Origin: Desmodesmus armatus
Lineage: Eukaryota > Chlorophyta > Chlorophyceae > Sphaeropleales > Scenedesmaceae
Direction: 5' to 3'
DNA: 64,000 bases
Assembly: GCA_007449985.2 (NCBI GenBank)
Contig: VIIQ02000070.1
Coordinates: 314,501-378,500, forward strand
The notes beneath the pieces are model-generated. The model had not been told where the DNA came from. It saw only the letters and a list, made by a program, of their open reading frames with translations, and searched no databases. Shown piece after piece: positions 6,350 through 63,225 of the stretch (position 1 is the first letter of the stretch; every line of letters begins with the position of its first letter). A program made the position numbers and the translations under genes.

Positions 6350-9300
6350 CTAGTCCAGGACCCCGGCCGTCATCTCATCTGCCAGCCTGGCAGCATGAGC
6401 ATCCGCATCAGCAGCCGTCATGCCGCCAGCAGCCGCCGCAGGACAGCCGCCGCCGACATTGCTGCTGGCAGCAGCAGCGGGTCGGTAAAACATCTCCTCC
6501 ATGCCTGGCAGGCTGGCAACCCTCCTGTCCACGGGAGGACTCGAACCCAGGACCAACTCAGCCACGTTGGTGGACGTTGCCGCCGCCGCCGCAACCATGT
6601 CCATGTTCATGGCATGGTCCAAGTCCATGCACTGCACGCCATGGTGGCCATACCCTTGCATGCCGAGAGGGTCGCTCGTTGCCGCCTCGGAGACAATCAG
6701 CAGCGGTGTCGCAGGCTTCCCTTGCGCAGGGACGAAGCTCCAAGGGTTGCTGACACCAGCTAGCATGGGGGTGCTGCTGCCGGGTAACCCCACCCCGCTG
6801 GCAGGAGATGCCAGGGGGTGGTTGTGCCCCTGTGGGGTCCCCACTGCCGTCCCCATCGGTGAGAATGCACCCCCCGCTGCTGTGGTGCTACTGTGGGTGC
6901 TGTAGGGCCCAGTGATGGCGGTACCGCTGCCTGGGGTTGTAACCGCGTTGAAGGTCTCTGAGGAGAACCCTGGAGGCAGCTGGGAGTCCAAGTCATGAGG
7001 GAGGGCCAGCCGGCCAGGCTTCTGCACCCCAGGCAGGAGCTGCTGCTGCTGCTGCTGCCAAGACAGCGCTCCAGACAGCCCAGCAGATCCAACCCTGGGC
7101 CCTCCAAGGGGAGGGCGGCCCAGGCTCAACCTGTCACCACCACCACTCATCCAGCCTAGGCCCTGAGAGGCAGCAGCAGCAGCGGCAGCATCCAGCAGCT
7201 GACCCCGGTAGTCGCCGCTGCTGCCAGTGCTGCTGCTGTCGACGCGGGTGACGCCGCTGCCGGTGACGCCGCTGCTGCCGCTGCTGCCGGCGGTGCCGAG
7301 CGGCTGGGGGGCGGAGCCGCCGCCTCGGAGGCCCATTGCTGCCGCTGCTGCTGAAGCCTCTTCAGGACTGAGTGCTGACAGCATTGCCATCAGCTGCTGC
7401 TCGTGCTGAAGCTCCTGCAGCTGCTGCTGCTGCCACGCAGCCGCCGCCTGCTGCTGCTGCACGTACGACAGCTGCTGCTGCTGTTGTTGCTGCTGCTGGA
7501 GCAGCAGCAGGTGCTGCACATTGGTCGCCGACATGCCGCCCATGAGTTGACCAGGAGGCGGGGCAAGCCCCCCCAAGCTACCACTCGCCCCAGACGATTC
7601 CAGGAGACCACTCGCACTCAACCTCCTGCCCACAGGCCCTGCCCCCTCCTGGTGCTGCAGCATACTAGCCACCCCAGCAACAGCCCCCGCCAGACCCCCA
7701 CCCGTGCTGACCGCACCCCTCGCCGCAAGCATACCCTGCTGCTGCTGCTGCCAGCTGCCGCTGCCGGCGGCTGCATTCACTGCTGCTGCGCCCTGAGGGG
7801 AAGGCGTGTGGATAAGTCCAGGCGCCGATGGACCCGGACTGTGCCAGCTCGATCCCGCCGCTGCTGCTGCTGCTGCGGAGCCAGGCTTGCCGCATACCCC
7901 CTGGGGTTGTACGGGGCGGCCTTAGGGTTCAGCTTGGCTTTGGTGGGTGTGCTGTGCGCCGAGGCAGCAGTACAGCCGCCGGCGGCTGCCGCATTGCTGC
8001 CGTCGCCGGCGGCTGCGGCGGCTGGGGAGTTGAGGCAGCTGCTGTTGTTGCTGGTGGTGCCGTCGTCTGACACGGCGGCCGTTCGCTGCTTGGACGGGCA
8101 AGCAGCTTCCAGCCACGACATGGATGTGCGCACAGACCGCTGCTGCTGTTGCTGCTGCTGCCAGGGTGGCGGCAGGTGGTGCTGCTGCTGCTGCTGCTGC
8201 TGGAGGCGGTCAGACCGGAGAGGGGAGGCTGCCACTGCACCTGCAGCGATGAAGGATGCGACACAAAGCCTGCTGGTCAGCACAGCACTGCAGTGGTCCG
8301 CACAGCAATAAAGGCCACAGCACAGCACTAAAGGCCCTTTGCTTGGCGAAGCCAGGTGCTGGTCAGCACAGCACTATACGCCCTTTGCTGTCGCTTTCAC
8401 GCATCCCAAATGATGGTACTGTGCCATCAACACACCCACACATGCATGCAGGCTCAGCTACTAAAGGAAAGCCCACTTCCTCAGACTCAAGACACTTCCA
8501 CACTGCACACTGCACCCAGGCCAGAGGCATGCCGCCTGCAATCCATGTCACGTGTGAACACAGCGCGTGTGTGCTCCCTCAAACATGGGGGTAAACAGGT
8601 TAATTATGATGGGTGTGTTCCTCTCAAACGCACCTGCAGGTGTCGCTGGCGGCTCCACAAAGGCTATGCCGACATGCAGCACAATCCTGGAAGTCACGCC
8701 CAAACCCCGGACTCAACAGCTTTCTTAGTGCACACAGACGCGCTTGGAACAAGAGACTGTACAGAGCAGGGCAGCCTCCCTATTTCCCCAACCTAGTCCA
8801 GTAAGCATGGCGAGCACCTCCCAGCAGAAACACACTGGCAACCACCCTCCATGCTGCAACACCACCCATTCACCTGCAGGTGTCGCTGGCGGCTCCACAT
8901 AGGCTCCTACAGGGATGCCGCCGCCCCCGTCAGCAGCCACAGCCCGGCCTGCAGCACTGCCGCTGCTGTCCGATGTGATGACTGCAGAGGGCGCTTGCTG
9001 CCCAAAGTCAGACCCGCACCCGAGAGCTGCTGCTGCGACCGATACAGACCAGGCATGCTCACTTTTGCCGTCCTTAGCTGCTGCTGCTGCTGCTGCTGCG
9101 CGGCTGCCTGCTGACCTTACAGTGCCGCTGCTGCCGCTGCTGGTGCGCCTGGGTGGGCTGTATATCGGCAAACCTCCTGTTGCTGCCCCAGCAGCAGCAG
9201 TAGGTGACGCAACATCTAGCGAAGGTACCACGTCTACATACCCACCCTGCTGCTGCTGCTGCTGCTGCTGCTGCTTCTTAGAGCCCTTGGCTGCACGCCC

Positions 9301-12300
9301 TGCACCCTTGTTGCTTGATGCTGCTGTTGCTGCTGCTGCACCGACCGTGCTCTTCTGCGGGCCGGCGCTGCTGTTGCTACCCCTGCTGCTTGCGTTGCTT
9401 GGCTGCAGGACCGCTGTGTACCCAGCTACTATCAAACCATCCTCCCCTGAGTACGCAGAGGCTTCAGCGCTCCCCTCCCGGCCGCTCTGTTGCTGCTGCT
9501 GCTGCTGCTGCTTGGCAAGTGTGCTGCTGCCCCTCGGCGCCACAGCCACAGTGACTGACGAACCCCTGCTACCAGAGCGCTTGCCTGCAGCAGCAGCCAC
9601 CCTGTCCCTGCCATCCCTCTGTACCGCAGTAGCTGCATCGACTTCGATACCGCCCGATGGTTCCTGACCTAGTGAAGTTTGCGGGCTGCAAGAGCTGGAG
9701 GTAGTGGGGCTGCTGCCCCTGCTGCTGCCGCTGCTGCTGGCGTTGCTGTCCGCAAGCATCTGCAGCTGAGCTGCTGCTGCTGCACCTGTCGAGGGGCTGG
9801 ATGAGATCATGCTGCTGCTGGCAGACCTGCTGCTGCTGAGGCTGCAGCTGCGAGAGAAGCTGCCGCCAGCTGCAGCAGCAGCAGCTGATGCAGACTCGGA
9901 CACCCTGTCCAGGCCGTCGGAGGTGCTGTTAGCAGCATTACGGGCTGCACGCTTGTCATCCTTGCCAGGAGCAAACACACGCTTGAACCAGGCAGAGAGC
10001 CGTGACGGCGCTTTCCTCGGCTTGCTGTGCGCCACCTGCTGCTGCTGCTGCTGCTGGTCGCTGCCTTCGACGCCCTTGTCTTGCTGCTGCTGTGGCGCAG
10101 ATGCCGCTGTCCCCTGCGGCTGCTCCTGCGTGCCCTTTCGGCTCTTCTCTTTCTTGCCGCGGCGTGCTTGCTCCTGCTGCCGCAGCAGCTCCTGCCTCTT
10201 CGCCTGCTGGGCCTGTTTCCGCCGCTTCGTGTACAGCTCACGCAGGCGCACGCTGTTCGAGGTGTTGCCCATACCCGCGGCCCCCGCCTGTCGCAGCGCT
10301 GCCTCCATGCCCTCCACGTCAGCGCTGCTCAGAGCCGCCTTTACTGCTGCCGCTGCTGCCCGCTGCATGCGGCTGCTGTCTGCAGCAATGCTGCCATTGC
10401 TGCCGCTGCTGCCAAGGCCACCGGTGGCCGCACCCACACCACCAACCGCAGCAGCAGGCACTGCAGGATACGCTCCAGCAACGCCAGCAGGGCCTGCGGT
10501 TGGTACGCTGCCACCACTGCTGACTGGGAAGGCGGTTGGCGCGGTCACGCCCCCACCCCCAGCGGCTGCTGCTGCCGCAGCAGCGACAGCAGCAGGGCTG
10601 CGACCCGTCGCTGCTGCTGCTTTCCGTGCACGCCACGGGGACAGCGCGCCCAACAGGCCCTGGGGTGGCTGCTGCTGCTGGGGCTGGCGGCTCCTTGCTC
10701 GAAACCTACTGGCAATAAAGGGCAAGCACACGATCAGCACCAGCATCCCCAGAGTGAGGGGTATCAGAGGCCCATCGTGCTGCTGCTGCTGTTTGTCCCG
10801 CTGGATCTTATTCAACTGCTCTAGCAGCTGTCGGTCTGCAATCTCCCTGTCCACACGCGCAAACGAGTTGTACATGTGCGGGTAGGGAGGCGAGTCGAGG
10901 TAGGGGTCGGCCGCCTGTTTACTGCGGCGCCGCTTGCTGCCGTTGCTGTTGCGCCGGCTGCTGCTGCTGCTGCCGTCGCTTTCGTCGTCTTCAGTACTAT
11001 AGCTGTCTGTGGCTTTATGGCGTCGGCCGCGCTTGCTGACGGCCCCCTCCCCGCCGCCGTTGCTGTTACTGTCCGACCCGCCGCTGCCCTGCCGCGCCCC
11101 GACAGCAGCAGCCCTGCCGTTCCTGCCATCCCCACCACACGTGGCGGCTTTGCGGGAGCCCGCAGCGGGCGCAGCACATGACGCAGGTGCGGCAGCAGCG
11201 GCCGTCGCTGCAGCCGCCACAGCCGCCGAGAGCCGTGCACGCGACTTGGGGGTGTAGCTGCCGGCCGCAGGCGGCGGGGTGAGGTTGCTAGGCAGTTGGG
11301 ACAGGGGCTGGGGGATCTAGGGACCTGCACCTGCTGTGCTGAGCAATCCCCTATGCTGGGGACCAATGCACTGCATCCTGGAGGGGCCCGGCCTTCTAGG
11401 AGGCTGGCTTCAGTGCAGCCTGAGCCCTTGTTGCGTTTCTGCAGCAGCCGTCGCAGGCTGTGGGTCTGTGTCAAGCTGTCGAGCTGCAATAGTAGGTACA
11501 TGGAGTCCTCCTGGTCCTGCAGCAGCAGCAGCAGCAACACACACAACGAAGGAGTCAGCACAGCCACCTTGCCACGTGGGTGGATGCATAAAACTGCAGC
11601 AGACAGCACATACTTGCTACCGCTCTGAGTGGTCGCCACTTAACTTTGTTGCACCACCACAACCAGCAGCACAGATAGCACCCCCACCATCACCCCACAG
11701 CTTGCGGCACACCTCAAACCCTACAACCCCACAACCAGCACTGACCTGTGTCAGTATGACATGGTCCAAGACTGCAGGTATGTCAGGAAAAAAATAGTAG
11801 TACACTCCAGGATTGGCCCCACAGTTTGCTTGGGATCCCGCAGGACACGAGGGGGGCACCTGCTGCACCGGTTGATCATGGTGGACTGCTGCTGCCCCTG
11901 CTGCGCGCCTGAACACTTCCTGCTGCTCAGGAGATAACTCCCCATCCACCATCGGAAGCTGCACGCCAGGCGCGAGCGCACGGATATGCAGGAAACCGCA
12001 CAACTCAAGGCCAGCTTGCTGTTGTTGCTGTTGCTGGGTGTGGCCCGCCCCTGCTGCAGTGCAGCTACCACCGGTCCCCTGCTGCTGAGAGGACTGATCA
12101 GCAGCAGCAGCAGCCGCACATGCTGAGGGATCCCCCGGGCTGCCGCTGCTGCTGACAGCACAGGAGCTTGGGCCGGTGACGTGTGCGCGCCCGGTGCGCT
12201 TGTCGATCGTGACCGCTTGCGCAGTGACCCAGGCGGGGAGGTAGCTCATGCAGCGGCTGCGTGCGTCTGTCCGCTGGCAGGGGACGTGCAAGTCCCGCAT

Positions 12301-15639: not shown

Positions 15640-18600
15640 TCACTCCAGCTGTGCACCAGACTTGACCCTGTACTGCTTTGGGACATTTGCTACACCCAGC
15701 TTGGCCCCCCGCTTGATGGATTTGCTTGTGGGGCCCTCCACCTTGCTCAGCACCTGCATATTCACACCAGCACACACCCATCACCAGCATTACACGTGTT
15801 TCCAGGCAGGTTCATTGCGCATGCAGCAGCACTGATTGACTGACTGACTGACTGACTGACTGACTGACTGACTGACCGACCGACCGACCGACCGACCGAC
15901 CGATTGACTGACTGACTGACTGACTGACTGACTGACAGCAGCAAATCGGCCTTGGTGCAAGACAAGCAAGACACCACCAGGCGACCAGTGACCTAGCACA
16001 CACCCATCCATGAATTTTCGTAGATGCTACAGGAAAGCTGACTAGCACCGCACGCATGCTGCATGTATACCCTGTGCTTTTACACACACCACAGCACACA
16101 TGGTCCACAAGCAGCTGAGGTCACGTGGGTGACAGGCCTTCCCAGAGGATGCTGTGCCCAGCAGATCAACCTCTCGTTCAGTAACGTGCTGCTCAGCACC
16201 CCCCCCCCCAACACACACACACACACTACTGCTGCTACTCAAGTAATCCCTGTGCTAACACACACACACACACACCATGGGTACCCACCTTCTCATCATG
16301 TAGTACAGGGCATCTGTCATTACCAGCAGTCTGTCAAACACGCCAGAGCTGCTCACCTTGTCCTACCTCCAATGTCAAGCAAGGGTTTCTCCCTTGTGCC
16401 TGTGCCTTCCCACATCTCAATTACTGCTCAGCACCCCCCCCCCCCCGCCAACCCATGGGTACCCACCTTCTCATACAGCGCGTCATTCGTCGCCAGCAGT
16501 GACCTGTCAAACACGCTGTACGCAGACCCGTCTGCTGTTGTGACACGCCCCCCTGCCTCCTCCAGAATGACAATGCCAGCGGCAACATCATACGGCTTCA
16601 ACATGTACTGGTAGTACGCATCAATCTGGCCTGCACATACACGGTCCACATCAGGCGATATGACTGGTAAGGTGATGTGCCTGCACATGTTGTTGTGAAC
16701 ACAATGTGTACTGGCAGCAGGCATCAAGCCAGCCTGCACACACGCCACACACATAACCCACGTCCCACATGTGTGAGTGGACACTTGATTGGGGAAGCAC
16801 TAGGAGTTGCACCATGCTGACAGGGGACCTGCAGTTCAAGGCAAGTAACGCCCAGTTGACATTACTCCACAGTGACTTCACCCGCCTCGACTGCACGCAA
16901 CACATCACCACTGACTGAACTGACCCCTTGGGCCCCAGGATAAAATTGCACGCCCCGTCAGGGACTTGACCCCCCTACCTGCAGCCAAATGGCACAGGTT
17001 GACTGCTGCTGCACCACTCGCACGCACGCCCTGCAAACAGCAAAAGGCAAGCATTAGCAGCAGCAGCAGCAGCAGCAGTGTGCAGGCCCATCGCAAACAC
17101 ACCCAAACCGGTGCCCGCTCTGTACCCCCAGCACCAAGAGCAGAGCGGTGTGAAAGGTGCAAAGGAGGTGCAAAGGAGCAACATCAACAGTCACACAATT
17201 CCAAATGAATTCACCCACCATGGCCTGCGTTGAGAAGACCTTGTACAGCTCCTGCTGTGCGGCCTCCAACACAGCGGCAAGACCCTCTAGCAACCTGACA
17301 TTCGGTTGGCAGCATACGCTATGTGTTTGCTTGAAACGCAGTTTCAAGACAGACCCTGTTGGTCTCACCCACTCACTGACGCGCCATACATCCCATGGCA
17401 CCCCACCTCAAAACACAGAACAGCCTGTGTGCCACCCACCATTGCCTGCGTTGAGAAGACCTTGTACAGCTCCTATTGTGCGTCCTCGAGCTCCTCAAAG
17501 CAGCAAGACACTCTAGCAACATGCCATTGCATGCTCTGTGGCTGCCACCCACATGCAGCAGAACTTAGGTGTTTGCTTGACACAAACTGCAACGGACCCT
17601 GTTGCAGCCTTGCTGGCTCACCACACACTCACGCGCCATATACCCCACCCCACCCCACCCCCAACCCCCACTCCCCAACAACAAGTGGGCCACCCACCAT
17701 TGCTTGCGTTGAGAAGACCTTGTACAGCTCCTGCTGTGCGTCCTCAAGCTCTTCAAAGTGGTTGAACTCAGTCGCCTGCAGGGGAGCGGGTGGGGGGGGG
17801 GGGTGGAGGAGAGTCAATGTGAGGAGGCGACCATCAGATGGTGGCAAAGTGGTGGTGGTGGTGACTTGAACGTGATGGCCCTCCTTTGTGACATGCCATG
17901 CTGTGACTTGCTTTGCTATGTCATGTGTTGTGCTGTTTGAAAAAGCACCCGACCACTTTGAAGCTTGGGAACTCAGGGCAGTTGGTTTGATGCCCTCCGG
18001 GCCAGAAAGTGGTGCGGAGATCCCCCCTGTGCTGCATTCCTGGCTACTGAAAAGCTGCGAAGTCACGTCAGTACTCACGATGAGTGCATCTTCAAGTTTC
18101 TTCACATTGCTGACAAGCAGGGGCTTGCCATCAACTGCGCACAGCAGCAGCAGCAGCAGCAGCAGCAGCGCTTATTTGGAGGACAGGAAAGAACATTACA
18201 CCTTGATGTGGTAATGTGTACACATACAAATCACGCGCTGGAGAACCAGTCCTATGTGCTTGCATGCACTGCATCCTCAGGCAGCAGCACGCTGATTCAG
18301 CGTGGCTCTCCTGATATATGGGGAGTGTGTTACATGGACATGTTCCCCAAACAACAATGGCATTGTCCACCAGGATTGAGCCAGGTGAACCTCATAAGTT
18401 GTCTCCCCTGCGGCGGTTTGCACAGCCTACACCGGGTTATATATGCAGGGCGAGGTGCTGTCTGACAAATGCAGTGATGCAGCGAGCTCGTTGATAAGGT
18501 GACCACATGGGACTTATTTCGTCTGCTGTGGCAGGGAACACAGTGGCAAGGGCATACCAACCAATTGAGACTTCCTGGCATGTTGCGGGCCACAAAATGT

Positions 18601-20674: not shown

Positions 20675-23600
20675 ATGTGCAAAAACCCATTGACTCACCA
20701 CCACTCCAGTGTGGTCTCATCAGGTCTCGCTTTCAGCATGGTGCTAGCTCTGGGCCCCAGTCGTTTGAGCCACACAGCGCTGCAGCACAGCAACAGGGCC
20801 TGCAGGAAATGGCTGGCAGCAGCAGCAGCAAGCACAAACCCAACCGCAACAACAACAGCTTTGCTTCACCCGGTGGTGTACCACCCAGACATGCAGATAT
20901 CACCCATACCAGATGATCACAGGTGATGACGATGTCGCCGTGTGGCACTACCCCACCTCTACTAGTAGTATTCCACAGCAGTGGCAGCAGCAGCAGCAGG
21001 GGCCAACATGCAGGCAGTAAGGCAACCACTCGCCATTGGTTACTTGCTGTGAAGCCACTGCTCACCTTGAAACACAGACATGGAACTCATGGCACGTTTA
21101 GTCATGCAGGATCTTGCTATCCAGTACCACCCCACACACCATCGAGCCTCAGCAAAACCGCCAGCACAACACAGCAAGCAGCAGTAGTTGAGAATGTAGG
21201 AGTTCTCAACGAGCAGCTGTGGCTGTGTCTGAATACAACGGATGGTGCTTGCTCCCCCCTCCCCCACATCTCTTTCCTACAAGAACACTGATTGACCATG
21301 CTGCACCTGCTGAAGGTTCCCAATGCCCCATCTTGTCTTACGTAAGCTTTCAAAGTACCCCCCCCCCAAAAAAGCGCCACCCACAGCTTGTGTGCTGTGC
21401 TGTGCTGTGCTGCAGGTTCCCCATGCCCAAGGACCACCTCCTGTACCTTGCCCTGCAGCAGGAGGGCCTAGCAGTGCCACCGCAGCAGCAGCAACCATCA
21501 CATCACTCTTCACATCAGTCATCACCACAGCAGCTTCCAGCAGCAGCAGCAGCAGCAGCCAGGCCCCGTAGCAATGTGTTTACACCAACCTACGGTGACA
21601 CCGACACCCTGTGTCTTGTGCATGATCCAGCCTATGTAGACGCATTCCTCACAGGTAGGTTTTAACCGCATCAGTGATGCAACCACATTCCCCCTACACC
21701 CCCCCCCCTTTCTCCAACACAGGTGCATCACAGCTGGGGTCACAGCCACCCTGTCATCATACGTATGTTCATGTTACATTCTACTATTATGTTACTAGAT
21801 GATTATACATATTATGATTATGTTATCATACTACGTATGGCATGGTTCTCCCAGCCTTTGGGTCTGACTGTACCGGGTGTGCTTGGCTGCCGCAGAGAGT
21901 CTTTGGCCGCACATCAAAGCCCAGGAGTGCTTCTGCGTAAATGTGTCTGCTCGGCCAAAACATGCAATCATGTTTTCAAAACCTCGTCTGCTAGAACTAT
22001 CTCTGCTATTGCCTGACAGGCAGCATATCAGCAGCAGACATGGGCTGCCGACTGTGCATACATGCGTCCAAATCTTGTCTGCTGGAACTGCCGCTGCTGC
22101 ATCTTCACAGGCAGCATATCAGCAGCAGACATGCGGCGCATAGGCTTGCCGTGGTCGCAGCAGCTCGTGCAGCGGACCCTTGTGGGTACTGGCAGTGCGG
22201 TGCTGGCAGCACGCCTTGCACTGTCTTTTGGTGTTGCGATCATGTGCAACGGCGGGACGCACCATGCACACCGGGCGCACGGGTCAGGTCGGTGGTGCAC
22301 CAGTGTTAAAGTGGAAGGCATTGAGCTTGCGTCATGTGTGTGTGAACACATGAATTTGGGGATACAGGACCGAAGGGTGTGTGTTAGACACATGAGTGTG
22401 TGTGGGGGGGGGGGGGGGGGGAGTTGCTTCGGATCGTTGTGGGGACAGGCAGTGCGGTACTGGCAGCCCGCCTGGCGCTGTTGTTTGGTGTTGCGATCAT
22501 GTGCAATGGCGGGACGCACCATGCACACCGGGAAAATGGGTCAGGTGGGGTAAGTGAGTAGGAATGGAATCAGGACTGATCCCAGATGCTTCCGATCAAG
22601 CTTCCTCTTAGGCCATTAGTCATGTGATGTTCAACCAAACATATTTCAGTGTCGAAGGCATCAGTGTATTTGCAATGGATGCGCACGTCTCTACCAAGTC
22701 TCCTCAAGCCGCCCTGGGTCCGTGCACCAGCTGTGCGCTTGCCTGTCACACTTTAGGACCCCTTTGTGGGAGTGTGCTGTTGGCCAGCTGCATTGGACTG
22801 CCTTTTGAAGTTTCCTCTGCGTTCTTACGCATGCAACAGGGACAGCTCTGTATGCACGCTATTTTCTCCAGCGCTCTGCTGCCTACTGGTACAACCCAGG
22901 GTGATAGTACGTGATAGTGTCTTCTCTGCTCTGCTGCATTCTGTGCACAGGTTGGTGCATTTTCAACGACCTGGCTGTTGCAGCAAAGGCGGCCCAGCGA
23001 GATGCAGGTGAGGCTGAACACCTCGGGCGTTCAGCCCACAACAACGTGATTTACTGTCACAGTACGGTGCGCGAGCCTGAAAACTTGTGATGCAGTATTG
23101 GTGCATCATCTGTACCACTAGCATGTGTGCCTCATTGTGATGCACGGCCTTATCCCCAATGAGCCTCTGGCTCCCTTGTGGGTTGCTCAGCTCTGCTGAG
23201 CCATTTACTGAACTGTAACTGTTATCGTTGTGCAGTGTGTTGTGCCCTATGGTGCCACCATAGGGCTCAACTGGCCAACACCAGTCTTTTCTGTGTAATT
23301 GTTGATTGCTGAACGCAGGAGTGGGCCAGGTGCTGATGTTGGACCTAGACGTGCATCAAGGGGACGGCAGTGCAACAATCTTCGCAGGTAGGGAGCAGCA
23401 GTGCCATGCTACATCAGTCGTGTGCAGTGCAGCTGTGGAAACACTGTGTGCTGGTCTTGGTGCAGCAGGAGGGTGCATATGACATGAGGTCAAGTACTGA
23501 GTAGTACCAGTATGACTAACCTCAAACAACCTCAAACACAGCCACCTTGCGACTAGGGTCCTGCACAGGATTGACCGTGACTGGTGGCGTGCGCTTGTGA

Positions 23601-24755
23601 CCCATCTGTCTTCAAGCTGAATTGGAGGTGCATGTGATTCAAAGTCCACTTCCCAGACGAGTAGAACCACCCTCATCCCTAAACCCCACTGCCCAGCCGC
23701 TGCGCGACTAGGGTTCTGCATAGGACTAACCACATTTGTCGGCATGCGCAGGTGACCCGTCTGTCTTCACCTTCAGCATGCACTGCGGCAACCAAACCTT
23801 CCCTACGGTAGTGCAGCAGTCTGATTGGGACATCGCGCTACCGGCAGGCACACAGGATGATGCATACCTGAAGGTGGGGTGATGCTCCCAGAGCAACGGC
23901 AAAAGCAACAGTTGGGCTGTTGTGCATTCATTTCTGAGCAGCCCTTTGCCTTTTGCGTACCATTGCAGCTACAAAACGGCTTGATTGGACATGAAAAACC
24001 TGTGCTTTTGTGCACCCGGTGTCTGGAATGCATGGCCTGATCCAATAGTGCAGTTCCCGCAGCAGGCAATGTCTTGGTCGTCAACGACCTAGGCCTTTTG
24101 TTGCTTGAGAGCGCAGTTTGCGGCCTATCGGTCAGTCGGCACCATGCTTTCCAGATCTATCGTATTCAGACATTGTTTTGATCAGTTGTTGTCTGGACTG
24201 ACTCAGCGGCTGTGCAATGTACTGCACTGCACTGCGCAGCATGTACATACACCATGCCATGGCTCTTGACCAGAGGCTCTTGACCAGACTAGTGATTGTT
24301 TGGCCTGAGCTGCGCAAGGCCACAGTGTTGCGCTCATGTACACCCAAGCATTGCTGGCAGAAGACGACGAACTGAGTCCCGCACTGTTCTGCCTGCCTCA
24401 TGTCCCGCCACCCCAGGTGCTCCAAGAGACCCTCCCAATCCTGTTCAGCAGAACAAAGCCAGACCTGTGCCTCTACAACGCGGGTGTTGATGTGCACAAG
24501 GATGACCACCTAGGGTTGCTGGCCCTGACAAATGAGGGCATCGCAGCGAGAGACCGGATGGTTTTGGATGCCTGTCTAGATGCGGGTGTGCCCTTGGCTG
24601 CTGCAATTGGCGGTGGATACCAGAAGGACCATCTACATATTGTTGACCGGCACATGCACCTTCACCGAGCAGCAGCTGAGCGCATGCCGCGCTTTGCGCA
24701 GATGGTGGAGCAGAAGTGGCGCGCACGCTCTGAACAGCGCCAGCATGCTGTGTGA
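20675..24755 (+). CDS. Histone deacetylase superfamily protein (bacterial-like group)
   Basis: Zn-dependent lysine deacetylase fold, closest by motif to bacterial/cyanobacterial HDAC-like enzymes (RFPM...VHDPAYV...RRIGLPWS). Exons 20675-20922, 21416-21654, 22111-22287, 22951-23007, 23319-23387, 23752-23873 and 24417-24755 keep phase and give 416 residues. The first ATG in the exon is used; the preceding in-frame GTG at 20657 was rejected as a start. Residues 1-65 are Ser/Ala/Arg-rich and could be an organelle presequence. Catalytic features are complete: tandem His in GGTHHAH (213-214), Zn ligands in LDLDVHQGDG (D251, H253) and NAGVDVH (D329), and Tyr372 in GGGY. The substrate is unknown: histone, tubulin-like or small-molecule amide are all possible. 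Four exon edges have extra copies: the 5' edge and 3' half of exon 3, the 5' edge of exon 6, and the 3' end of exon 7. Confidence 0.95.
21977..22135 (+). repeat. HDAC exon 3 acceptor duplicated
   Basis: The acceptor and first 23 bases of exon 3 (acag|gcagcatatcagcagcag) occur at 22107-22133 and again at 22017-22042, with shared upstream text (gtctgctagaactatc against gtctgctggaactgcc). After atg the upstream copy diverges (ggctgcc instead of cggcgc). It could act as a competing splice acceptor about 90 bases upstream. Confidence 0.85.
22437..22550 (+). repeat. Second copy of the 3' half of HDAC exon 3
   Basis: The copy encodes GTGSAVLAARLALLFGVAIM then CNGGTHHAHRENGSG, and ends at donor gtgggg in the same phase as the main exon. 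Main exon 3 reads HRAHGSG at the corresponding place. The copy is preceded by a 19-base poly-G run and lacks the RRIGLPWS segment. Codon differences between copies are mostly silent (7 silent, 3 changing, counted by eye). Confidence 0.85.
23547..23622 (+). repeat. Decayed copy of HDAC exon 6 acceptor region
   Basis: This aligns with 23703-23775 over both the intron end and the exon start (gcgactagggt..., then gtgaccc/tgtctgtcttca). In the copy the acceptor gcgcag is gcgctt, so the AG is destroyed and it should not splice. It is a fossil stage of the same duplication process. Confidence 0.8.
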
Positions 24756-24780
24756 ATGGCTGACTGCTTCCATTTTGTCG

Positions 24781-24889
24781 AAGGCACATGCACCTTCATA
24801 GAGCAGCAGCGGAGCGCATGCCGCGCTTCGCGCAGATGGTGGAGCAAAAGTGGCGCGCACGCTCTGAACGGCGCCAGCGTGCCTCCTGA
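24781..24889 (+). repeat. Copy of the last 36 codons of HDAC after its stop
   Basis: 24648-24755 encodes RHMHLHRAAAERMPRF through to the stop. 24781-24889 repeats it, ending RSERRQRAS-stop. The copy is open throughout. Differences are seven silent and three changing codons, the changing ones all in the last seven codons. It lies in the 3' UTR and would be translated only if spliced in or read through. Confidence 0.9.
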
Positions 24890-27253
24890 ACGGCAGGCTC
24901 CTTGAGACATGTGGCATGCGATGTGCATTCAGCATGGATTGTTTTGGTCTGGAGCAAGTGCAGTACTGGTCACAAATTGCTTTTATCAGGTGCTGTACAG
25001 TCAGCCCAACAGATTTTGTGAAAAGCAGCGCTGCTGTTCAGCATGTGCATCCTTTTGGTGTCAGACAAAAAAATGTTGGTCGTTCTTTGCAGACCCTTTT
25101 TGACAGGCACTCATGCAGCTCTGTTCTGCTGGCGTCCGTGGATGTCCTGTGAATGCCCACAATATGAATGGTGGTTGATGTGCAGGCCAGGCGTTACACA
25201 CTATAAGAGATGAGTCACGGCACAAGTGCTGTGCAGTGAGCAGCAGTGACAACACTTCACACAATGCCCCGACAGATGCCCGAAGAGAAACAGATCCTGA
25301 CGCATGCACTCACACTTCGACTGGTGAGCGGGTGTGAGCACACTTCTTGGGCATTGCCAGGCAATCACACAGCATATATAAAAAAGCAGCTGCTGTGCAC
25401 GAGCAACAGCAACATTACACTCGATGAGTAAGAAGAGAACCCCTTGTCAAGTGGACAAGACCCGGCAAGGAAAGTGGATATATTAATGTGTTCAAGATTT
25501 ACACACATGCCAAGGCCGTGCTGCCAGCCACACACCCTTGCATGCAGTCTGCAGCCGCAACAGGGCTACCCACAGGCTTGCTGAACAAGCTTGAGAGGAT
25601 AGACCCCGCACAGAAGCACACACGAACAAACACACACCCTGCGATCATAGGGCCCATGAGCACCACAGCTTGCAAAGTGTAACACGGACCGATACAAGCA
25701 GCAACACGTAGATCCCAAAATCGTGACGGGTGACGGAGGGTGCACCATCACGTCTTGCATCCTGTATCATTCACACTCACACACCCCACGGAAATATACA
25801 GCCGCCCTGGCACTGACGGGACAAAGGAGGCAAAAGAGAGACTTGCAGTCATGAGTGCATGACATGCACACAGCAAATCCTACCATGAAAGCATGGGGGG
25901 CCAAACCAGAGCACAAGTTCAACACCCACTGCCGTAACAATGCCTGGGCCAGCGCATTACGCGCAGAGGTACAATTGCCTGTCTGCAGCCGCACAAAGTG
26001 CACAAGGTGCTCCTCCCCCACACACTACTGTCACCCGATTGTCACACAACCGTTCACCATGTCCAAATATACTATGCTGTAGTACAGCCAAGAAACACGC
26101 AAGTAGAAAATACATGTCTACATGTCACACGCGCATGGGCGGAAGGTGAACGATCTGCCAACACCAACACTAGCAACCTGCACTGTCTGTGGACGCGGCA
26201 GGCTCAACATGATGCTGGAGCAGCCTGCCATTGTGTGGGCGAGCACCCCATAGCAGCATGCTCTGGTGACACCCAAAGGGAGCAAATACTGCAGTCTGCT
26301 TGCCCTGCGGTGATCCCACCAAAGCACCTCCTGCAAACCACACGATGCTGATTGAGTTCAACTGTGTGCAGCACAGACGCTGCTTTGCAACATTCCCCCA
26401 ATCCACAGGCGGGATGATGCTGGGCCAGCATCCGCCCGCCAACACAAACAACAAACACAGGATTGGAGGTTGGTTGCAATACACTGCTGATGCTCACCAG
26501 CTCCTCATCAGCTGCACACAGGTATCCTAGGGCTCTGCATGCACCACCTCGTACCAGCAGCAGCAAGGCACACACAAACAGCTGCAAACAGTTGCTCAAG
26601 CTAACAAAACCACTACACAAACCACCAGGTGCACCAGCGTGCCTGATCATGCACAGCACAGAAGGGTACCTGCATACAGCACACACCACCTGCCATGCAA
26701 GCATGCTGCACAGCTGGGACAGCACCTACGGGAATGACAACAACCACCAAACGCCCCGCCAGCACTAGCGCAGTGCAGAGGCACAGATGGCACTTCCACC
26801 AAACAACAGACATGGCGCATAACAACAGACGGGTACAGGGAGCATGTGTGCTGACATAGACTGCCTGTCACCAGCAACCAAACATTGCAGGGCTACAGTG
26901 CACCAATGACAGGTGCCTATGTTCGCTGCAGCAGAAGTGGCGGCGCGGCGACGGCTGCAATGCATGCATGTCCACAAGTCACTGCATGTTTCAGCATGAC
27001 AACAGAGGGGAGCGTGACAAGCAGTGTCCAGCATGAGAAAAACCAGGTCTGTGATCACCACAGTGACACCAACCACGCGCCCCCTTGACTTGCCCCTACA
27101 TCCCATCGACACGCAAGTAAAGATACAGGCCTGCAGGCACCCTTCACGCAACACATACCAAACAGCAGCAGCCCAGGCGCAGATTGGTGACAGCATGTGG
27201 CTTCACCTGCTGCTGCCTCCGCTGCTGCTGCATGCTGCATGCAGTCCTGCGCT
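24890..27253. other. Intergenic, convergent gene ends
   Basis: Holds the 3' UTRs of the deacetylase gene (plus) and the Cys-rich gene (minus). Short ORFs here show no family resemblance and no usable splice chain. No repeat stands out. Confidence 0.55.
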
Positions 27254-39545: not shown

Positions 39546-41161
39546 TTGGTGCCTGAGGGTGCTGCCCAACAGCATTCTTTGGAAGGATGTGAGAGAGATG
39601 CGAGACTTGCAGCGCTGTTGGGCCAGCGCCATAGCTGCATGGTTTAGCTGCAACAGTGTGACCCTGTCATTTCTGATCACCACCGAGTATTACTGATGAT
39701 GTATCAGACGAATACGTGCTGGCGCAGGTTGGAGCATTGCAAAAAGGGGCATTGCAAAAAGGGGGAATACAGTCCTGTCCAGTAACCATGTGTTACTGCC
39801 TTTGGCGCTGGAAAGCGCTGCTACTGCCTAGTGTAGGACGCATTTGGTGAAGTTTGAGGGTGATTGAATGCTGGAAGTGAGCCCTCAAAACCACTGTCCC
39901 TGCCTTTTCTGGCGCTTATAGAACTTAGGACTTGCCAAGTTGGGGTGTACATGGGGCCAGCTGTGCCAGTTGTATGGCACTAGTGTGTGTGCACTACAGT
40001 ACTGTTGATGACAAGTTGTCGGTTGCTATCAAAGTTCAGCACCTGAGATTGTGCAGCATGCCGCTATCTGCGACATGCTCACGATGTACCTGGTGCTTTC
40101 TATCCAGCACCTTCAAGCTCCCACCACCGTGGAACTGTGCTGAACCTGTTTGTCTGCAAGTGTCGGATCACAGCAGTGTTGCTGGTTGCGTTCTGCATGA
40201 TTGTGATGCTGTCACAACCACGGTGGTTCAATCAATATACAGACATAGAGGTGGGGGTCCCCTCGGCACATGCCATGATGGTAATGCTGCCAGCAATGAA
40301 TTCACATGGCCATTCAACGGTTTGATGTGCTGAATGCACAAGGGTGGGAGCTGCAACTACCTTTGAATCACATCATCCTCGTTCGGTGGCAAATTGGTGA
40401 CTGCAGCTTGCGTGTGTAAGTCACGGGTATGCTTTTTGCACATCAGAGGTTGAGGGAGTATTGCAGAAGTGGTGGTGGGTGCGCAGACTGCTGCAAACTG
40501 CTAATTGTGAGTGTCTTTGTGGAGCTTGAAGTCACATTGGAAGGCCAGTGCCGCAGGCCTCGATCTACCAAGATCTGCGGGAAGCAGCTGTATCATAAAG
40601 GCATAGATTGTAGCAAGTTGATAAGGCTTTGAAGGTGTCGAACTCCCACGATTCCAACATGCCCGACATCGACCGCGTGTTGCCCCAAGTTGGATTCTGA
40701 ACCTTGCACCGCAACCGTTGGTGTTGAACACCTGAACACCGCCACATTCATGACGATGTCTGTACAGTACAGCTTACACAAACCGTCGCAACCGCCACAC
40801 CTGGCTTGGCCACAAGGAACACTACTGGCAGCAGTGCTGTCTCAGCAAGATGCTGCTAGTCAGCATCCACAATGCTGCTATCCAACGATCGTTCTGCCGA
40901 GGCGCCACATGTCCCAACCTGCGCCGATCCCTTGAAACTACTGCCACTACTACTACATTACTGGACCAGGGCCTCGCCTGATCGCCCTTTCAGGGCCAAA
41001 CAAGGCTCGAACAAAACAGACAGAAAGGCACCACTGCCAGTATGTAGCTGTGCAGACTGCATTGTGCTGCTGCTGTGCAGGGCTGCCGGAGCTGCTGTAC
41101 CAAGTCGTTGACTAATCAAAGCATGCGAATGCTGCTGCTTGAACCCTGTGCATGCCGCTGC
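39546..41161. other. Intergenic
   Basis: No supported gene. TTACA at 40774-40778 (TGTAA on the minus strand) is a possible poly(A) signal for the acetolactate synthase gene, about 385 bases beyond its stop. A short repeat gcattgcaaaaagggg occurs twice at 39735-39766. Confidence 0.5.
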
Positions 41162-44100: not shown

Positions 44101-47100
44101 GGGATTCCTTAATGGGGGGGGTGTTACAAATGGATACTAAGAGTAATACTCACACGCAAAATAAGACACACTGTTGCATGCTGAGGGCTCAAGTGAACTC
44201 CCTTCAGAATGCTGTTGCGGTTTGCTGCAGGGCACCACCCCTCCCTTGACACCCCCCCTACACCCCCCCCACCCACCCTTCAAACACACCCACACTCACA
44301 ATGCAGTACGGATGATCAGGCTGCAGGCTGCAAATTCCTGTGGCAGCAGCAGTTGTGAGGGCAGCCGGCACTGCCGACCACTGCCCCTCCCCCCTGGCGC
44401 CAAACCCACCACACCTCAAATCCCGCTTACTCTGACTTGCGCTGTGACGGGCCGCGGCGCTCTGGCACATTTGTCTGTTCCAAAAGCTCCTCCCCACCCT
44501 TCAGGCTGATGCGGCCGGTGTGGACATGTTGCTCATAGCAACCCCTTCCCCACACACATGACGCGCACACGCGTGCCACACATGCAACAGTCAACCTACA
44601 GAAATTCAACCACGCTCTCACTCACATGAACCAGAGACCCCCCCCCACCCCACCTTAAAACCCGCTTACTCTGATTTGCGCTGTGAAGGGCCGCGGCGCT
44701 CTGGCATGTTCGTCTGTTCCAACAGCTCCTCCCCCCTCTTCAGCCTGATGCGATTGGTGCACACAGGTTGCTCATATTGACCCCTTCCCCACAGACATGA
44801 CGCGCACCACACGTGCCACACGTGCAACAGTCAACCTACCGGACTTCAACCACGCTTTCACTCACATGCACAATAAGAGAGCCCCCCACCCCACCTCGAA
44901 CCCCGCTTACTCTGACTTGCGCTGTGAAGGGCCGCGGCGCTCTGGCATGTTTGTCTGCTCCAGCAGCTCCTCCCCCCGCTTCAGGCTGATGCGGCCGGTA
45001 CGGCACACCTCCATCACACCAAACTTGCTCAACACACGCTGCATTGCAACCGTCTGCGTGTGTCAACACAGGAACGCGCGCGGGAGTGAGCACAGGAGCA
45101 AAAGCAGGGGCGGAGGGGGGTATAGCAGGCAAGAGCAGGTGGAAAAGTAGGGGTGAATGCAAGACCACTAGCAGTATCAGTATTACAGGCAGTTGAGGCA
45201 GGCTCCTGTGACTGTTTATGTTGATAAGGCAGGGCAGCAAAAAAAAGTGTGCAGCAATATAGCAAGCCTGAGCAAGCAAGAGCGTTGTGCTGTATCTTGG
45301 ACAGTCTCAGATCTTAGACAGATCTTGGACGGATCTTAGACACAACTCAGACAGTAGGCGCACCTTGCCAGGATCTCCAGACACGCAGAGCGTGAGGCCA
45401 CGTTCGCTGACGTCCACAACGCGCGCACGGAAGATCTCTGCCAGCTGCAGCACCTCTGTGCGGGCAGGACCAGCTGGGGCACGCAGCTTTATCAGCATCA
45501 GCTCACGCTCTGCATGGGGGGACAGCACAGCACAATACCGTACAACACCGTACATTACATTACATTGCATGGCAGCGCAGTATACAGTACAGCTTTATGA
45601 GCATCAGCTCACGCTCTGCATTGTGGAAGACAGCACAGTACAGTACATCACAGAACAGATAGTACCGCCCAGCGGTGGAAGTATCCACTTGTAACAACCT
45701 CCCCCCCCCAAGAACAGTATACAGTACAGCTTGATGGGCATCAGCTCACGCTCTGCATGGCGGGGAAGCAGCGGTGTGACAAGAGTGAGGCAGAGAGTGG
45801 CGGATACAAGTGAGGAAGTGTGTGAGTGAATGAGCCTTGCAGTACGGCTTGGCTTGCTGGCTCATTCAGTACTACAATACAAGGGCCCGAAAAACAGGGA
45901 CGTAGCTCAGACTGATGATGCATTTGTTGGATAGCGTGAACCAGGCGATGGCTACCGAGGCAACAGAGGGGGTTGTGGGGTCCTGGTGCCGCTGCTGTGC
46001 CACTCACCCACTCGCTTTGCTGATGTGATGTCCTCCACATACCGCACCTTCACCAGCTTGCCCAACTGCTTCACAAGGTTGGCCTACACAGCACCAACAC
46101 ACAACACCAAACACCTTAGCCCCTGACGCTTGACATACTTGCAACGTGCTTGTGTACTGCCTAGTACCCAGCACACGGCCGGCCTGTACAGCACTTCCAC
46201 ACACGGCGTGCGCGTAAGCACCAGACTTGCCTTGCCGAAGGGCGGAGCACTTGCCCTAGGTAAGGCATGGCGTGGGCCCGACCCCCACCACCACCCCCAA
46301 CCCCCACCCCCATGCGGCGTGAGCAAAGCCATAAGGTGTACACACTGGCAGTTTTCAACATGTACGTACTTCCAGTAACACCAAGCACAGACCAGGGCGG
46401 ATGCATGAGACATGTCAAGCACTAAAACCGGCACAGTGCCAGACATATTCAGCGTGCAGGAGTAGCAGCATTGTTCACTCACTGCTGTTTTTTTTGTGCC
46501 TGTGACCACAATGGTGAACAGTGCCTTGTCGATATTGAGCCCGACAGCCAAGCTGTCAATGTTGGCGCCTGCATGGGGGGGGGGGGGTCACACAGGGAAC
46601 ACACATGGGATACGCACAGTCAGATCGCTCCACTCCACCCCGACCCCAAAACCAACTCTCCCGACACTCCCCACAGTGCCCCTGGCAGCCCCGTAGCCTC
46701 ACACACATATCTGCCACTGGCAGTCACTAGTCTTTTTTTCTCGACCCTGTCCAGCCTACCGTATCGCCCACCCTCCCCCCAGACTGCGCGCCTGATGCAC
46801 ACTGTAAATGCCCCGATTCAGAACCAAGCCACTGCACGCACGCACCCCCCCCCCCCGCCCCACACACACAACACACTTACAGACACTTTACGATCGTGCA
46901 GAGATGCCCTCTTCAACAGGGTACGTGATAGCTTGCATTCTCAAAGTACATTCCTCGACCGGCCTGCTAATGAAATGGCTGGATGCAGCCAATGTGTCAC
47001 CACACCAGCCCTCCGGCTAACAGCCTTCCACTCACCTCGCCTGGCAAACACTCCTGCCACGCGGTTGATCAGACCCGACAAGCAACTTTCTGATGCAAGG

Positions 47101-60008: not shown

Positions 60009-60476
60009 TCAACTGCACGCAGGGCTCTCAACAGCCAGCCGCTTCGCTGCCCGCCCTTCCTCCTCCAACTCTGCCCCCTGCTGCCGCTGCTGCTGCTGCT
60101 GTGCGAGCCTCGCTGCCATGGCTGTCACTGCTGCTGCTGGGGACTGCTGCTCCCCACTCGGCGCCTCCTGCTGCTGCCGTGCTGCAGAGGCTGCCTCTGC
60201 CCCATCACCACCAGCAGACCCACCAGCCGCACCAACAGCAGCAGCAGTTGCCCGTGCTGCCTCCACTTCTGCCAGTGCTGCAGCCTCTCGTTCCTGCTCT
60301 GCTATGGCTGCTGCCTTGGCTGCTTCTCTCTCCATGGCCTTCAGCTTGCGCTCAGGAATTTTGGGCACCGGGTAGTCCCGACCTGAGGCTGACACCAGCT
60401 CACGCAGCTCAGCAACCTGGGGGGCGGGGGGGGGGGGGGTGGGGGGGGTGGGGGGGGGGGGGGGTCAGTGGTTGGT

Positions 60477-60517
<41 letters not shown>

Positions 60518-63043
60518 GGGGGGGGGGGGGGGTAAAATGAGGGGTGAATTGAGGCAGAGACATCAACACGGAGTAGCCCCGGCCTGAAGCTGTCACCAAC
60601 TCACGCAGCTCACCAACCTGGGGGGCAGGGGGTGAGGTGGTGGTGGTGGGTGGGTGGGTGGGGTGGGGGGGGGGGGGTGGGGGGCGTCAGTGGTTGGGGG
60701 GGTGGGGGGGGGTGGGGGGGTGGGGGGGGGGGGGGGTAACATGAGGGGTGAATTGAGGCAGAGACATCAACACGGAGTAGTCCCGGCTTGAAGCTGCCAC
60801 CAACTCACGCAGCTCACCAACCTGGGGGCAGGGGGGTGAGGTGGTGGGGGGGGGGGGGGGCGTCATGGTGGGTGGGGGGGTGGGGGGTGGGGGGGTGGGG
60901 TGGGGTGGGGTGGGGTGGGGGTAACATGAGGGGTGAATGAGGCAGAGACATTAACACGGAGTAGTCCCGGCCTGAAGCTGCCACCAACTCACGCAGCTCA
61001 CAACCTGCCAAAAAAGCGAGGAAGGGTTCAACCGACGGCACTTGTAACCTGCAGATCATAAGGGGACAAGAAAACTGGGTTGCATCACCTCTCAGTCAGC
61101 TTGTTCCAGTCTGGTGCTTCATCGTCAGCTTAGACAGTTGTTGCATCACCTCTCAGTCAGTTTCTTCCAGTCTGGTGTTTTCATCATCAGCTTAGTGCAT
61201 TGGCTAAGCTGATGAAGAAACACCAGACGGGAACAAACTGACTGAGAGGTAAGGCAACCCACACTTCGCAGGTTGGCAACTTGCACCTACGAAACCTGAT
61301 CAGTGACTCTCGCAAGCAGCCAAGCCTGCCCCCCCCCCAGTCCTTTCGCCTCACCCCACGCCCTCACCCCCACCCCTGCCAAGCACCACACCAGTGTCTC
61401 TCTCCATCCACCCTTCCATGCACTTGTCCACCCCTCCATCCAACCCCAATACCCCAATGCCTACCTACTGCCGCCAGTACGGTCAGCACACTAGTAAACC
61501 CATTCTTTTGCCCTCAACCCCACACTATCCCCAGTTATCCTTACCAAGTGTGCCATTGATGACAATCGATCACAACAAACACTGCTATCTTGGTTATACT
61601 GACGCACTCACCAGCTGCCGCAGCTTCTGTATGGCCCTCTGTGCTGACATTGCACAAGAGACATCACTAGGTCTTGCTTATTGACGCTGTACAGCTGGCG
61701 TCATCTGCACCAGCACGGCCAAATTCCCATAGCTGAATCACTCACCAGCTGCCGCAGCTTCTGTATGGCCTCCTCTGTGCTGAGGCCGCCCAGTGTGTGC
61801 ATGCGGGCCCTGATGTCTGTGTACTCACCCAGGAAGCCCTGCAGAAAACAAAAGCAAGCAGCAGAAACAACGGCTGAGTGGCGGGAGTACCAGAAACAGA
61901 GGATACACACAAGCAAGTGACCAGCGTATACATGTGGGCCCGGATGTCTGTGAAATCACCCAGGAAGCCCTGCAGGCAAATGAAATCAAGCAAGCGAAAG
62001 CAAGCGCCAGCAACACCAACGGCTGATTGGCTGGAGGGCCAGACACAGCAACAGAGCATGCGCACGCACCAATGACCAGGGTTTTGATGCGAACCCTAAA
62101 GTCCGTGTGCCCTTCAGCAAGCAGTGGCCGACTGGTCTGCTAAGAGAGCAGTTGTCATCATGCTGCTGCAGGTGCACATGGCACCCTAGTTGAGCGTAGC
62201 CCACTTCACTACCCACTGACCACAGCAGCCCTGCCGCCTCCTCAAAACGCCACACACTCAGATGCATCTCTTGCACCACTTACTGTTATCAGCTTGTGCA
62301 CATGTCCGCGCACCATGCGCATGTGTGTGGGGTGCTTCTCACACCATTGCAGGTACTCCTCACACATCCGCAGGCCCTCTAGGGGGGCCAGGGTGGTGGC
62401 CTGCAGGATCAGCAGCAGTGGCGCAGCAGCAGTCACAACAGCATCCATAGTAACTAATATACCTCATAGTGTTGATTGGTGCAGACGCGCCACACATCCG
62501 CAGGCCCTCCGGGGGAGCCAAAGTGGTGGCCTGCATGTGCGCAAGCGGTAGCCACAGAAGGCACAGTCAGACGTGTTTCATGGTGCAGTCGATTTTGTGC
62601 CGACTGCTCCCCACTTACCTCAATCCACAAGTGCAATCCAAGGGGCTGCATTCTGCAACCTTACTGCCAGGCCAGGACAAATGCAAGTGTTGCATCAACC
62701 CATCTTCTCGCTTCCTTCCTGCCTTTCTGGCCACACCGGCTGTAGTTCCTCAACATTCAGAGCGTCCTGCCTCCCCCCCCCCACACACTCCCACCTGCTG
62801 CACACCCTTTGATATTTCCCGCACTAGCACTCAAGCCTTCACAAGAATGTAATTGAGTATGCCTAAACCCAAACTCTTCCTCACAAAACCCCCGCCAGCC
62901 CTGGTCCCCACCACTCACGTCATGCGGCTGCTGCACTGCATCAAACAGCATCGGGTTCATCAGCAGCGGCTCCGCTGACATCACCCCATCTGCTCCTGTC
63001 GCCGCCATCAGCGCACGCGCCTCCTCCAAGCAGCGCACATCGC
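60009..63043 (-). CDS. tRNA-dihydrouridine synthase, Dus1 type, C-terminal part (5' end off window)
   Basis: FMN enzyme reducing uridines in the tRNA D-loop. Visible exons: 63043-62919, 62400-62284, 61838-61746 and 60416-60009, all in phase, about 247 residues. Exon 1 has the end of the barrel: DVRCLEEARALMAATGADGV then MSAEPLLMNPMLF, the FMN-phosphate loop typical of Dus. Then come GLRMCEEYLQWCEKHPTHMR and MVRGHVHKLI (helical tRNA-binding domain), and DIRARMHTLGGLSTEEAIQK. The last exon reads ELRELVSASGRDYPVPKIPE then a Lys/Glu/Ala-rich coiled tail ending VESPACS. The N-terminal barrel with the catalytic Cys would lie right of the window. Every visible exon has at least one edge copy, and the last exon's acceptor has expanded into a G-rich array. 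Confidence 0.92.
60416..61008 (-). repeat. Dus1 last-exon acceptor expanded with poly-G/C spacers
   Basis: Besides the real acceptor at 60416, copies encoding ELRELV(T/A)AS(G/S)RDYS lie at about 60569-60620, 60771-60823 and 60955-61006. Spacers at 60420-60535, 60640-60740 and 60835-60925 are almost pure G on the plus strand, that is poly-C before each acceptor in the transcript. All copies share the following non-exon text (gtgttgatgtctctgcctca), which the real exon does not have. Confidence 0.9.
61080..61257. repeat. Direct copy plus long perfect-type foldback hairpin
   Basis: 61141-61195 and 61204-61257 are near-complementary 54-base arms around an 8-base loop (tgcattgg). A direct copy of the left arm lies at 61080-61132. 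The arms share ctctcagtcag and ccagtctggtg. It lies in a Dus1 intron, so it would form a long RNA hairpin in the primary transcript. Confidence 0.9.
61605..62115 (-). repeat. Edge copies of Dus1 exon 61838-61746
   Basis: Upstream copies of its 5' part: 61976-about 61927 (GFLGDFTDIRAHMYTL) and about 62115-62070 (EGHTDFRVRIKTL). A downstream copy of its 3' part and donor lies at 61603-61645, with two bases lost inside the coding text. The exon is thus flanked on both sides by fragments of itself. Confidence 0.82.
62497..62535 (-). repeat. Edge copy of Dus1 exon 62400-62284 acceptor
   Basis: Reads atgcag|gccaccactttggctc, encoding ATTLAPPEGLRMC. The real exon begins ATTLAPLEGLRMC. Three of the four codon differences are silent. 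Acceptor AG intact. Confidence 0.88.
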
Positions 63044-63180
63044 CTGCTCATAGCAGAACAACAGAGAGAAGAGTGAGTGTACACAACAACATGCCTTAGC
63101 ACAGAGACACGGCCCAGCAAGGCTCCTCCAAGTGATGGTGCTATGGTGGCTTGCGCCCTATCTGCTGATCTGCCGTGTTG

Positions 63181-63225
63181 CCGCCATCAGCGGCTGCGCT
63201 TCGTCTAGGCACCGCACATCGCCTG
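63181..63225 (-). repeat. Edge copy of Dus1 exon 63043-62919 acceptor
   Basis: Reads gtgcag|gcgatgtgcggtgcct, encoding GDVRCLDEAQPLMAAT, against GDVRCLEEARALMAAT in the real exon. About 180 bases upstream in transcript order. Acceptor AG intact. Confidence 0.85.

What the first reader, a model, noticed from the sequence alone, without database searches (positions are those of the whole stretch)
8626..63225. Recurrent tandem duplication of exon-intron edges across at least seven genes
Extra copies of exon edges (acceptor + exon start, or exon end + donor), or of exon 3' ends, occur at about 8640, 16280, 17220-17700, 22020, 22440, 23550, 24780, 33330-34200, 39380, 43370, 44430-44760, 45600-45750, 47010, 60570-61000, 61605-62110, 62500 and 63181. 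They hit unrelated genes (IMPL1, HDAC, ALS-SU, Dus1 and three unknowns), mostly at 70-250 bp spacing. Most keep GT or AG. Where I aligned codons for five open copies (HDAC exons 3 and 7, ALS-SU exon 7 twice, the poly-Q gene exon), differences total about 31 silent against 13 changing, far from neutral expectation. One reading is a genome that constantly makes splice-edge duplicates, some used as alternative exons and some becoming new introns. The dull reading is haplotype mis-joining.
Basis: partly seen in the sequence, partly recalled or inferred. Interest (0 to 1): 0.92.

Follow-up and report, generated by a model that had tools for sequence, protein, structure and literature searches.

The report
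Decaying local copies of exon edges
A green alga's genes are littered with old, partly decayed copies of the ends of their coding segments lying a few hundred bases away in the introns, which is real but looks more like tolerated debris than a new kind of gene part.

Summary
All 17 listed places have a nearby direct self-match, and the class recurs elsewhere in this 115.8-Mb Scenedesmaceae-like algal genome: 91 non-redundant pairs in 335 kb sampled. Controls: 92 direct matches within 1 kb against 5 at 1-2 kb, 3 inverted and none simulated.

Outside the window, too, pairs share splice donors and codon-periodic differences. With frames anchored by orthologue or Pfam, differences are 73 silent to 42 changing, too silent for a neutral copy (P 9e-5 to 5e-7).

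But the copies do not look like exons. Upstream acceptors are no commoner than at random, spacing ignores frame, the 13 polarisable amino-acid changes in HDAC and ALS all fall on the copy, and 7 of 29 copies carry a stop or frameshift. I saw no new intron.

Haplotype mis-joining fits poorly: arrays hold three or four distinct copies, two tested genes are single-copy, and introns after the copies are unrelated in 8 of 16 comparisons.

Best reading: real local duplications tolerated in introns. The silent bias remains unexplained.

The parts
22111..22287 (+). HDAC exon 3, main copy (start and end both duplicated nearby)
   Evidence: orthologue comparison and self-match; Pfam hit below cut-off
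21976..22042 (+). copy of HDAC exon 3 acceptor and exon start, 91 bp upstream
22430..22549 (+). copy of HDAC exon 3 end plus inferred donor, 257 bp downstream; 10 silent, 5 changing
23549..23614 (+). copy of HDAC exon 6 acceptor region, AG lost
24771..24903 (+). copy of the end of the last HDAC exon, downstream of the stop codon
16275..16343 (-). copy of inositol monophosphatase exon end plus donor (main 16453-16516)
17212..17745 (-). three-copy array of exon end plus GTGGGT donor; main 17691-17745, copies from 17433 (in-frame TAG) and 17212; frame from open reading only
33330..33525 (+). copy of poly-Q gene exon end plus donor (main 33073-33263); donor motif recurs to about 34190 in poly-G; frame from open reading only
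43363..43443 (-). copy of ALS small-subunit exon end plus donor (main 43528-43609), 1-nt deletion, five amino-acid changes
44405..44999 (-). three copies of ALS small-subunit exon end plus donor, 239-bp period; main 44885-44999
45484..45770 (-). ALS small-subunit exon start with acceptor; main 45484-45527, copies 45590-45646 and 45715-45770
47005..47079 (-). copy of ALS small-subunit exon end plus donor (main 47213-47287)
60366..61007 (-). four copies of acceptor plus exon start beside poly-G; main 60366-60419; no Pfam match, frame from open reading only
61599..62048 (-). probable Dus-gene edges: exon-end copy 61599-61647 (2-nt deletion; main 61733-61783) and exon-start copy 61921-62048 (main 61790-61899); frames from open reading only
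62491..62535 (-). copy of probable Dus-gene exon start with acceptor (main 62361-62405); frame from open reading only
63168..63254 (-). copy of Dus-domain exon start with acceptor (main 62988-63074), frameshift
39387..39557 (+). copy of 39120-39299, 74% identical, frame uncertain (9 silent, 16 changing in the long ORF)
8871..8905 (.). 35-bp copy of 8631-8665, gene and frame unknown

Best explanation
This alga's genome has gained many short local direct duplications (67 of 91 are 60-300 bp apart), by tandem duplication or by copying a nearby stretch into the neighbouring intron. A duplication that crosses an exon edge on its intron side is nearly harmless: the original splice site is still used and the intron only grows longer. 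Duplications inside an exon, or of a whole exon, are removed by selection. Duplications wholly inside introns soon become unrecognisable. So what survives to be seen is mostly exon edges. The copies are decaying relics, not exons. Shown: the copies, their recurrence across the sampled genome, no excess of upstream acceptors, lesions in copies, and amino-acid changes falling on the copies in two genes. Inferred: the mutational mechanism, the tolerance argument and the detection argument. Not explained: why the copies differ from the main exon so largely at silent sites (omega about 0.2 per pair), with pooled silent divergence 0.24 in the window and 0.22 outside it.
For: Local, direct and recurrent. 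In two genes with exons placed by me and the sequence, 36-37% of random units of the observed size would cross an edge, 48-52% would be intron-only and 8% would hold a whole exon. No excess of acceptors before 19 exon-end copies. Spacing modulo 3 is 31/27/33. Amino-acid changes in HDAC and ALS edges lie on the copy 13:0, with 4 unpolarised. Stops or frameshifts in 7 of 29 copies. The relatives' ALS proteins aligned carry each segment once. In 10 arrays examined the closest two copies differ by 0.086, and in 7 of 10 the copies are about equidistant. ALS small subunit found only in this contig (11 of 11 matches); the HDAC has 9 of 20 matches here, the other 11 at 33-53% identity.
Against: A simple neutral copy beside a main copy at omega 0-0.1 predicts 41-46% silent differences; observed is 93 of 148 (63%) over 24 comparisons at 23 edges: P = 7e-7 without context weights and 2e-5 with them, assuming a fully constrained main copy. 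With anchored frames only, 73 of 115 (P 6e-6 and 9e-5). Silent divergence is more uniform than continuous births allow (P 0.002-0.006 at the tighter of the detection limits tried). Only 4 of 91 pairs exceed 96% identity. Shared strong donors (score 6 or more) occur in 16 of 91 pairs against 3.7 at random placement, though slower decay of exons may explain that.
Confidence: 0.5

Rival explanations
1. The copies were already diverged when they were joined: recombination or templated repair between strongly diverged homologous chromosomes (a hybrid or hyper-polymorphic past) placed an edge from one functional allele beside the edge of another. The silent bias is then allelic divergence, and later decay added the lesions.
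For: Silent bias, retained splice sites, similar silent divergence inside (0.24) and outside (0.22) the window with low spread, scarcity of young copies, and amino-acid changes and lesions on copies.
Against: Arrays of three or four mutually distinct copies would need as many diverged homologues. No diverged second locus was found for two genes. One possible allelic overlap (C793/C794) is 99.6% identical over 3.1 kb.
Confidence: 0.2
2. The copies are kept by selection: used as alternative or backup exon edges, or as decoy splice sites.
For: Silent bias; similarity stops 6-14 nt into the intron in 12 of 22 donor-bearing pairs (three of the 22 are from one array, and in one the donor scored is on the wrong strand); GT or AG kept in 19 of 20 edges (by eye).
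Against: No excess of acceptors before exon-end copies, frame-blind spacing, lesions in 7 of 29 copies, 13:0 polarity of amino-acid changes, and orthologues with a single segment.
Confidence: 0.15
3. Assembly artefact: diverged haplotypes or strains mis-joined into one contig.
For: Would give silent-biased differences with intact splice sites and uniform divergence; no reads were available to exclude it.
Against: Three or four distinct copies per array. In 8 of 16 donor comparisons the sequence after the two donors shows no homology, although allelic introns should match. Tested genes are single-copy. 67 of 91 pairs are only 60-300 bp apart. Copies carry stops and frameshifts; main exons were chosen as open, so their lack of lesions is no independent test.
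Confidence: 0.12

Closest known systems
[quoted passage not shown] potato RdRp case, PMC4974935, passages read)
   Same: Short direct duplications, some crossing an intron-exon boundary and carrying splice signals.
   Different: There the duplicate becomes part of a working exon-intron structure with a new intron. Here no copy was seen joined to a following exon, and exon-end copies show no excess of acceptors. The paper also mentions an 83-bp duplication inside an intron with no effect on gene structure, which is closer to this case.
False (heterotype) duplications in assemblies (PMC9516828, start of abstract seen in a search listing only)
   Same: Neighbouring near-copies differing at allelic-like sites (general knowledge of such errors).
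   Different: More than two distinct copies per array, unrelated introns after half of the copies compared, and no second locus for the two genes tested.
Minisatellite-like tandem repeats in introns (general knowledge)
   Same: Several arrays are head to tail (239-bp period at 44.4k, 204-bp at 60.4k).
   Different: Only 12 of 91 pairs match over at least 80% of their spacing, and copies are diverged and few.

Membership tests
[quoted passage not shown]
   By inspection only, of the 16 window edges with a main exon: no second copy is joined to the next exon.
[quoted passage not shown]
   Only relatives' proteins were available, not their genes.
Duplicated alternative (mutually exclusive) exon | Copy carries both an acceptor and a donor | tested here: not met
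   19 exon-end copies: 1 upstream acceptor of score 4.5 or more against 17.6% at random positions; means 2.2 and 3.4 (one search gave 2 of 19 with less exact start positions). The acceptor matrix is my own and rough. Donors after exon-start copies were not tested.
Duplicated alternative (mutually exclusive) exon | Copy spliced into mRNA | not testable with these tools
   No RNA reads; the relatives' ALS proteins aligned show the segment once.
Haplotype mis-joining | At most as many lineages as haplotypes, and homologous introns after both copies | tested here: not met
Haplotype mis-joining | Single reads carry one copy | not testable with these tools
   Reads not available.
Introner or transposon insertion with target duplication | Spacer between copies recurs elsewhere in the genome | tested here: inconclusive
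   Whole-genome DNA searches of two 20-kb stretches returned mainly other dispersed repeats, but scored only 39 of 2137 and 39 of 1038 candidates.
Tandem repeat array | Head-to-tail contiguous units | tested here: inconclusive
   12 of 91 pairs match over at least 80% of the spacing; others may have decayed.

The most novel reading that the evidence does not exclude
Intronic copies of exon edges that are not exons themselves are nevertheless held under coding-level selection, so that this alga carries, if the sampled density holds, some tens of thousands of conserved reserve exon ends, all of about one age.
Probability: 0.12. Interest if true: 0.85.

Novelty: new variant of a known kind. Interest (0 to 1): 0.45.

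Why it matters
If the duplications are real, this genome is a dense record of how short duplications enter introns and survive there, and a natural test bed for models of splice-site redundancy and intron gain. The unexplained silent bias and low spread of silent divergence would say either that the copies were diverged before they met (a hybrid or hyper-diverse past) or that non-exonic copies can be under selection. Long reads and RNA reads could decide between these.

Tried and rejected
Ab initio gene finder: attempts failed; one search shows that coding signal against background is weak here. I used orthologues, Pfam and donor and acceptor matrices of my own, typed in from general knowledge.

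Frames outside the window by longest ORF: 7 of 15 donor-bearing pairs passed my rule and gave 18 silent to 35 changing, no bias (P = 0.81). One pair (L033 at 4662, 3:24) drives this, and in another (L035 at 7035) the rule picked a frame other than the one a weak Pfam match supports. This result goes against the silent bias. With Pfam-supported frames 8 copies at 7 edges give 32:21 (P = 0.002 at main omega 0.1, 0.006 at 0). Two of these frames (UTP15_C, and the first GH9 piece with two copies) rest on matches below Pfam's cut-off; without them 5 copies give 19:15, not significant alone (P 0.05-0.15). The kinesin pair was dropped because my peptide was not found in the stretch given; one search had 4:0 for it.

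Uniform age: the first test (P near 0; 0.0002 on the combined set) ignored detection limits. With a crude detection model P is 0.002-0.006 at limits of 18-21% difference and below 0.001 at 25%; the deficit of young copies alone is only P 0.06-0.20.

Context weighting has a flaw: A/T sites that changed to G/C were counted with the G/C class. I think this makes the test conservative, but I did not rerun it.

Acceptor test: some copy starts lay inside the copy; one search repeats it with corrected starts.

Comparisons are not all independent (several copies per array), and the random-placement donor test counts array members apart.

Considered and set aside by reasoning: array contraction that swaps copy and main in turn (one lineage is always neutral, so no silent bias). 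RIP-like hypermutation: transitions 558, transversions 512, no strong skew.

Literature: searches; I saw listings and starts of abstracts, and passages of one paper. No title or abstract start in those listings describes exon-edge copies across a green-algal genome. The species was not identified.
Full report
WHAT WAS CHECKED. The window lies in contig C66 of a 115.8-Mb, 831-contig assembly. Among the listed HDAC relatives the named best are Scenedesmus sp. PABB004 (66% identity) and Tetradesmus obliquus (69%), so it is probably a Scenedesmaceae-like green alga; the species was not identified.

BEYOND CHANCE AND BEYOND THE WINDOW. In 20 stretches of 10 kb taken at round coordinates from larger contigs, 12 of 20 held at least one such pair: 36 pairs within 1 kb, 3 further apart and 4 inverted. 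Over 334.6 kb (window, these stretches, and loci fetched by searches, so not a random sample) there are 91 non-redundant pairs after low-complexity filtering, 25 of them in the window. The control count was 92 direct within 1 kb, 5 at 1-2 kb, 0 at 2-3 kb, 3 inverted within 1 kb, and 0 in simulated sequence. Spacing is 60-300 bp in 67 of 91. Identity is 80-90% in 44 of 91, and 4 of 91 exceed 96%.

SILENT BIAS. Window frames come from orthologues or Pfam for 10 edges and from open reading alone for 6. All 21 comparisons (392 codons) give 79 silent and 44 changing differences; one copy per edge gives 61:34, of which the 10 anchored edges give 41:21. Eight copies outside the window with Pfam-supported frames, some below cut-off, give 32:21. 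Silent divergence is 0.24 and 0.22, changing-site divergence 0.05 in both, and pair omega is 0.21 and 0.24. A neutral copy beside a main exon at omega 0-0.1 predicts 41-46% silent. Observed are 93 of 148 over 24 comparisons at 23 edges (P = 7e-7, 2e-5 with context weights, both with a fully constrained main copy), or 73 of 115 with anchored frames only (6e-6 and 9e-5). Adding the unanchored 39.1k pair (9:16) leaves P = 3e-4. Against this, a longest-ORF choice of frame outside the window gave 18:35 over 7 pairs and no bias, and the 5 outside copies with Pfam matches over cut-off alone give 19:15 (P 0.05-0.15).

WHY THE COPIES DO NOT LOOK LIKE EXONS. Of 17 amino-acid differences found over six ALS and HDAC edges, 13 put the orthologous residue on the main exon, none on the copy, and 4 are unpolarised. 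So the copy is the changed one. Seven of 29 copies have a stop or frameshift. Upstream of 19 exon-end copies, good acceptors are no commoner than at random: 1 of 19 against 17.6%. Spacing is random modulo 3. The relatives' ALS proteins aligned have each segment once. By inspection no copy is joined to a following exon, so no new intron was found.

HAPLOTYPES OR REAL DUPLICATION. ALS small subunit matches only this contig (11 of 11), and the HDAC has no second close locus. Ten arrays with three or four copies were aligned. In 7 the copies are about equidistant: for example 0.136-0.169 among four in L003, 0.20-0.28 among four in L035, 0.19-0.25 in the ALS array. In 3 they are not (60.4k, L015, L033), and the closest pair of all is 0.086 at 60.4k. 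Two haplotypes alone would not give this. In 8 of 16 donor comparisons the sequence following the two donors has no detectable homology; in 3 it is strongly and collinearly homologous, and in 5 the score is raised but at shifted positions. So some cases are tandem and others resemble insertion of a nearby copy into the intron. Mis-joining predicts homologous introns throughout.

WHY EXON EDGES. In HDAC and ALS, with exons placed by me and the sequence, units of the observed size placed at random would cross an edge without holding a whole exon in 36-37% of cases, lie in introns only in 48-52%, and contain a whole exon in 8%. Edge duplications on the intron side are plausibly tolerated and decay slowly on the exon half; intron-only ones decay on both sides. 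This explains the pattern without any targeting of splice sites, but it is an argument, not a test.

WHAT REMAINS OPEN. Neutral relics should not differ so largely at silent sites. The low spread of silent divergence (P 0.002-0.006 at tighter detection limits) and few young copies (not significant on the coding set alone) hint that the copies were either born diverged (joined from diverged homologues) or arose in one past episode. Selection on copies cannot be excluded.

Noticed in passing
   Followed up: partly
   Followed up: partly
window 30457-30624: Dispersed element of about 170 bp with 7 listed matches at 93-96%.
   Followed up: partly
window 33220-34190 and 60419-60920: Stretches made largely of poly-G runs with repeated donor or acceptor motifs; such G tracts might form quadruplexes near splice sites (the quadruplex idea is a guess).
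   Followed up: no
G000 C793 and C794 (L028, L027): 3.1-kb stretches of two contigs 99.6% identical, with an apparent 25-bp tandem array; a subtelomeric duplication or a redundant contig.
   Followed up: no
window 32572-38740: Long CAG runs in large open frames, up to 24 repeats at 32872-32944.
   Followed up: no
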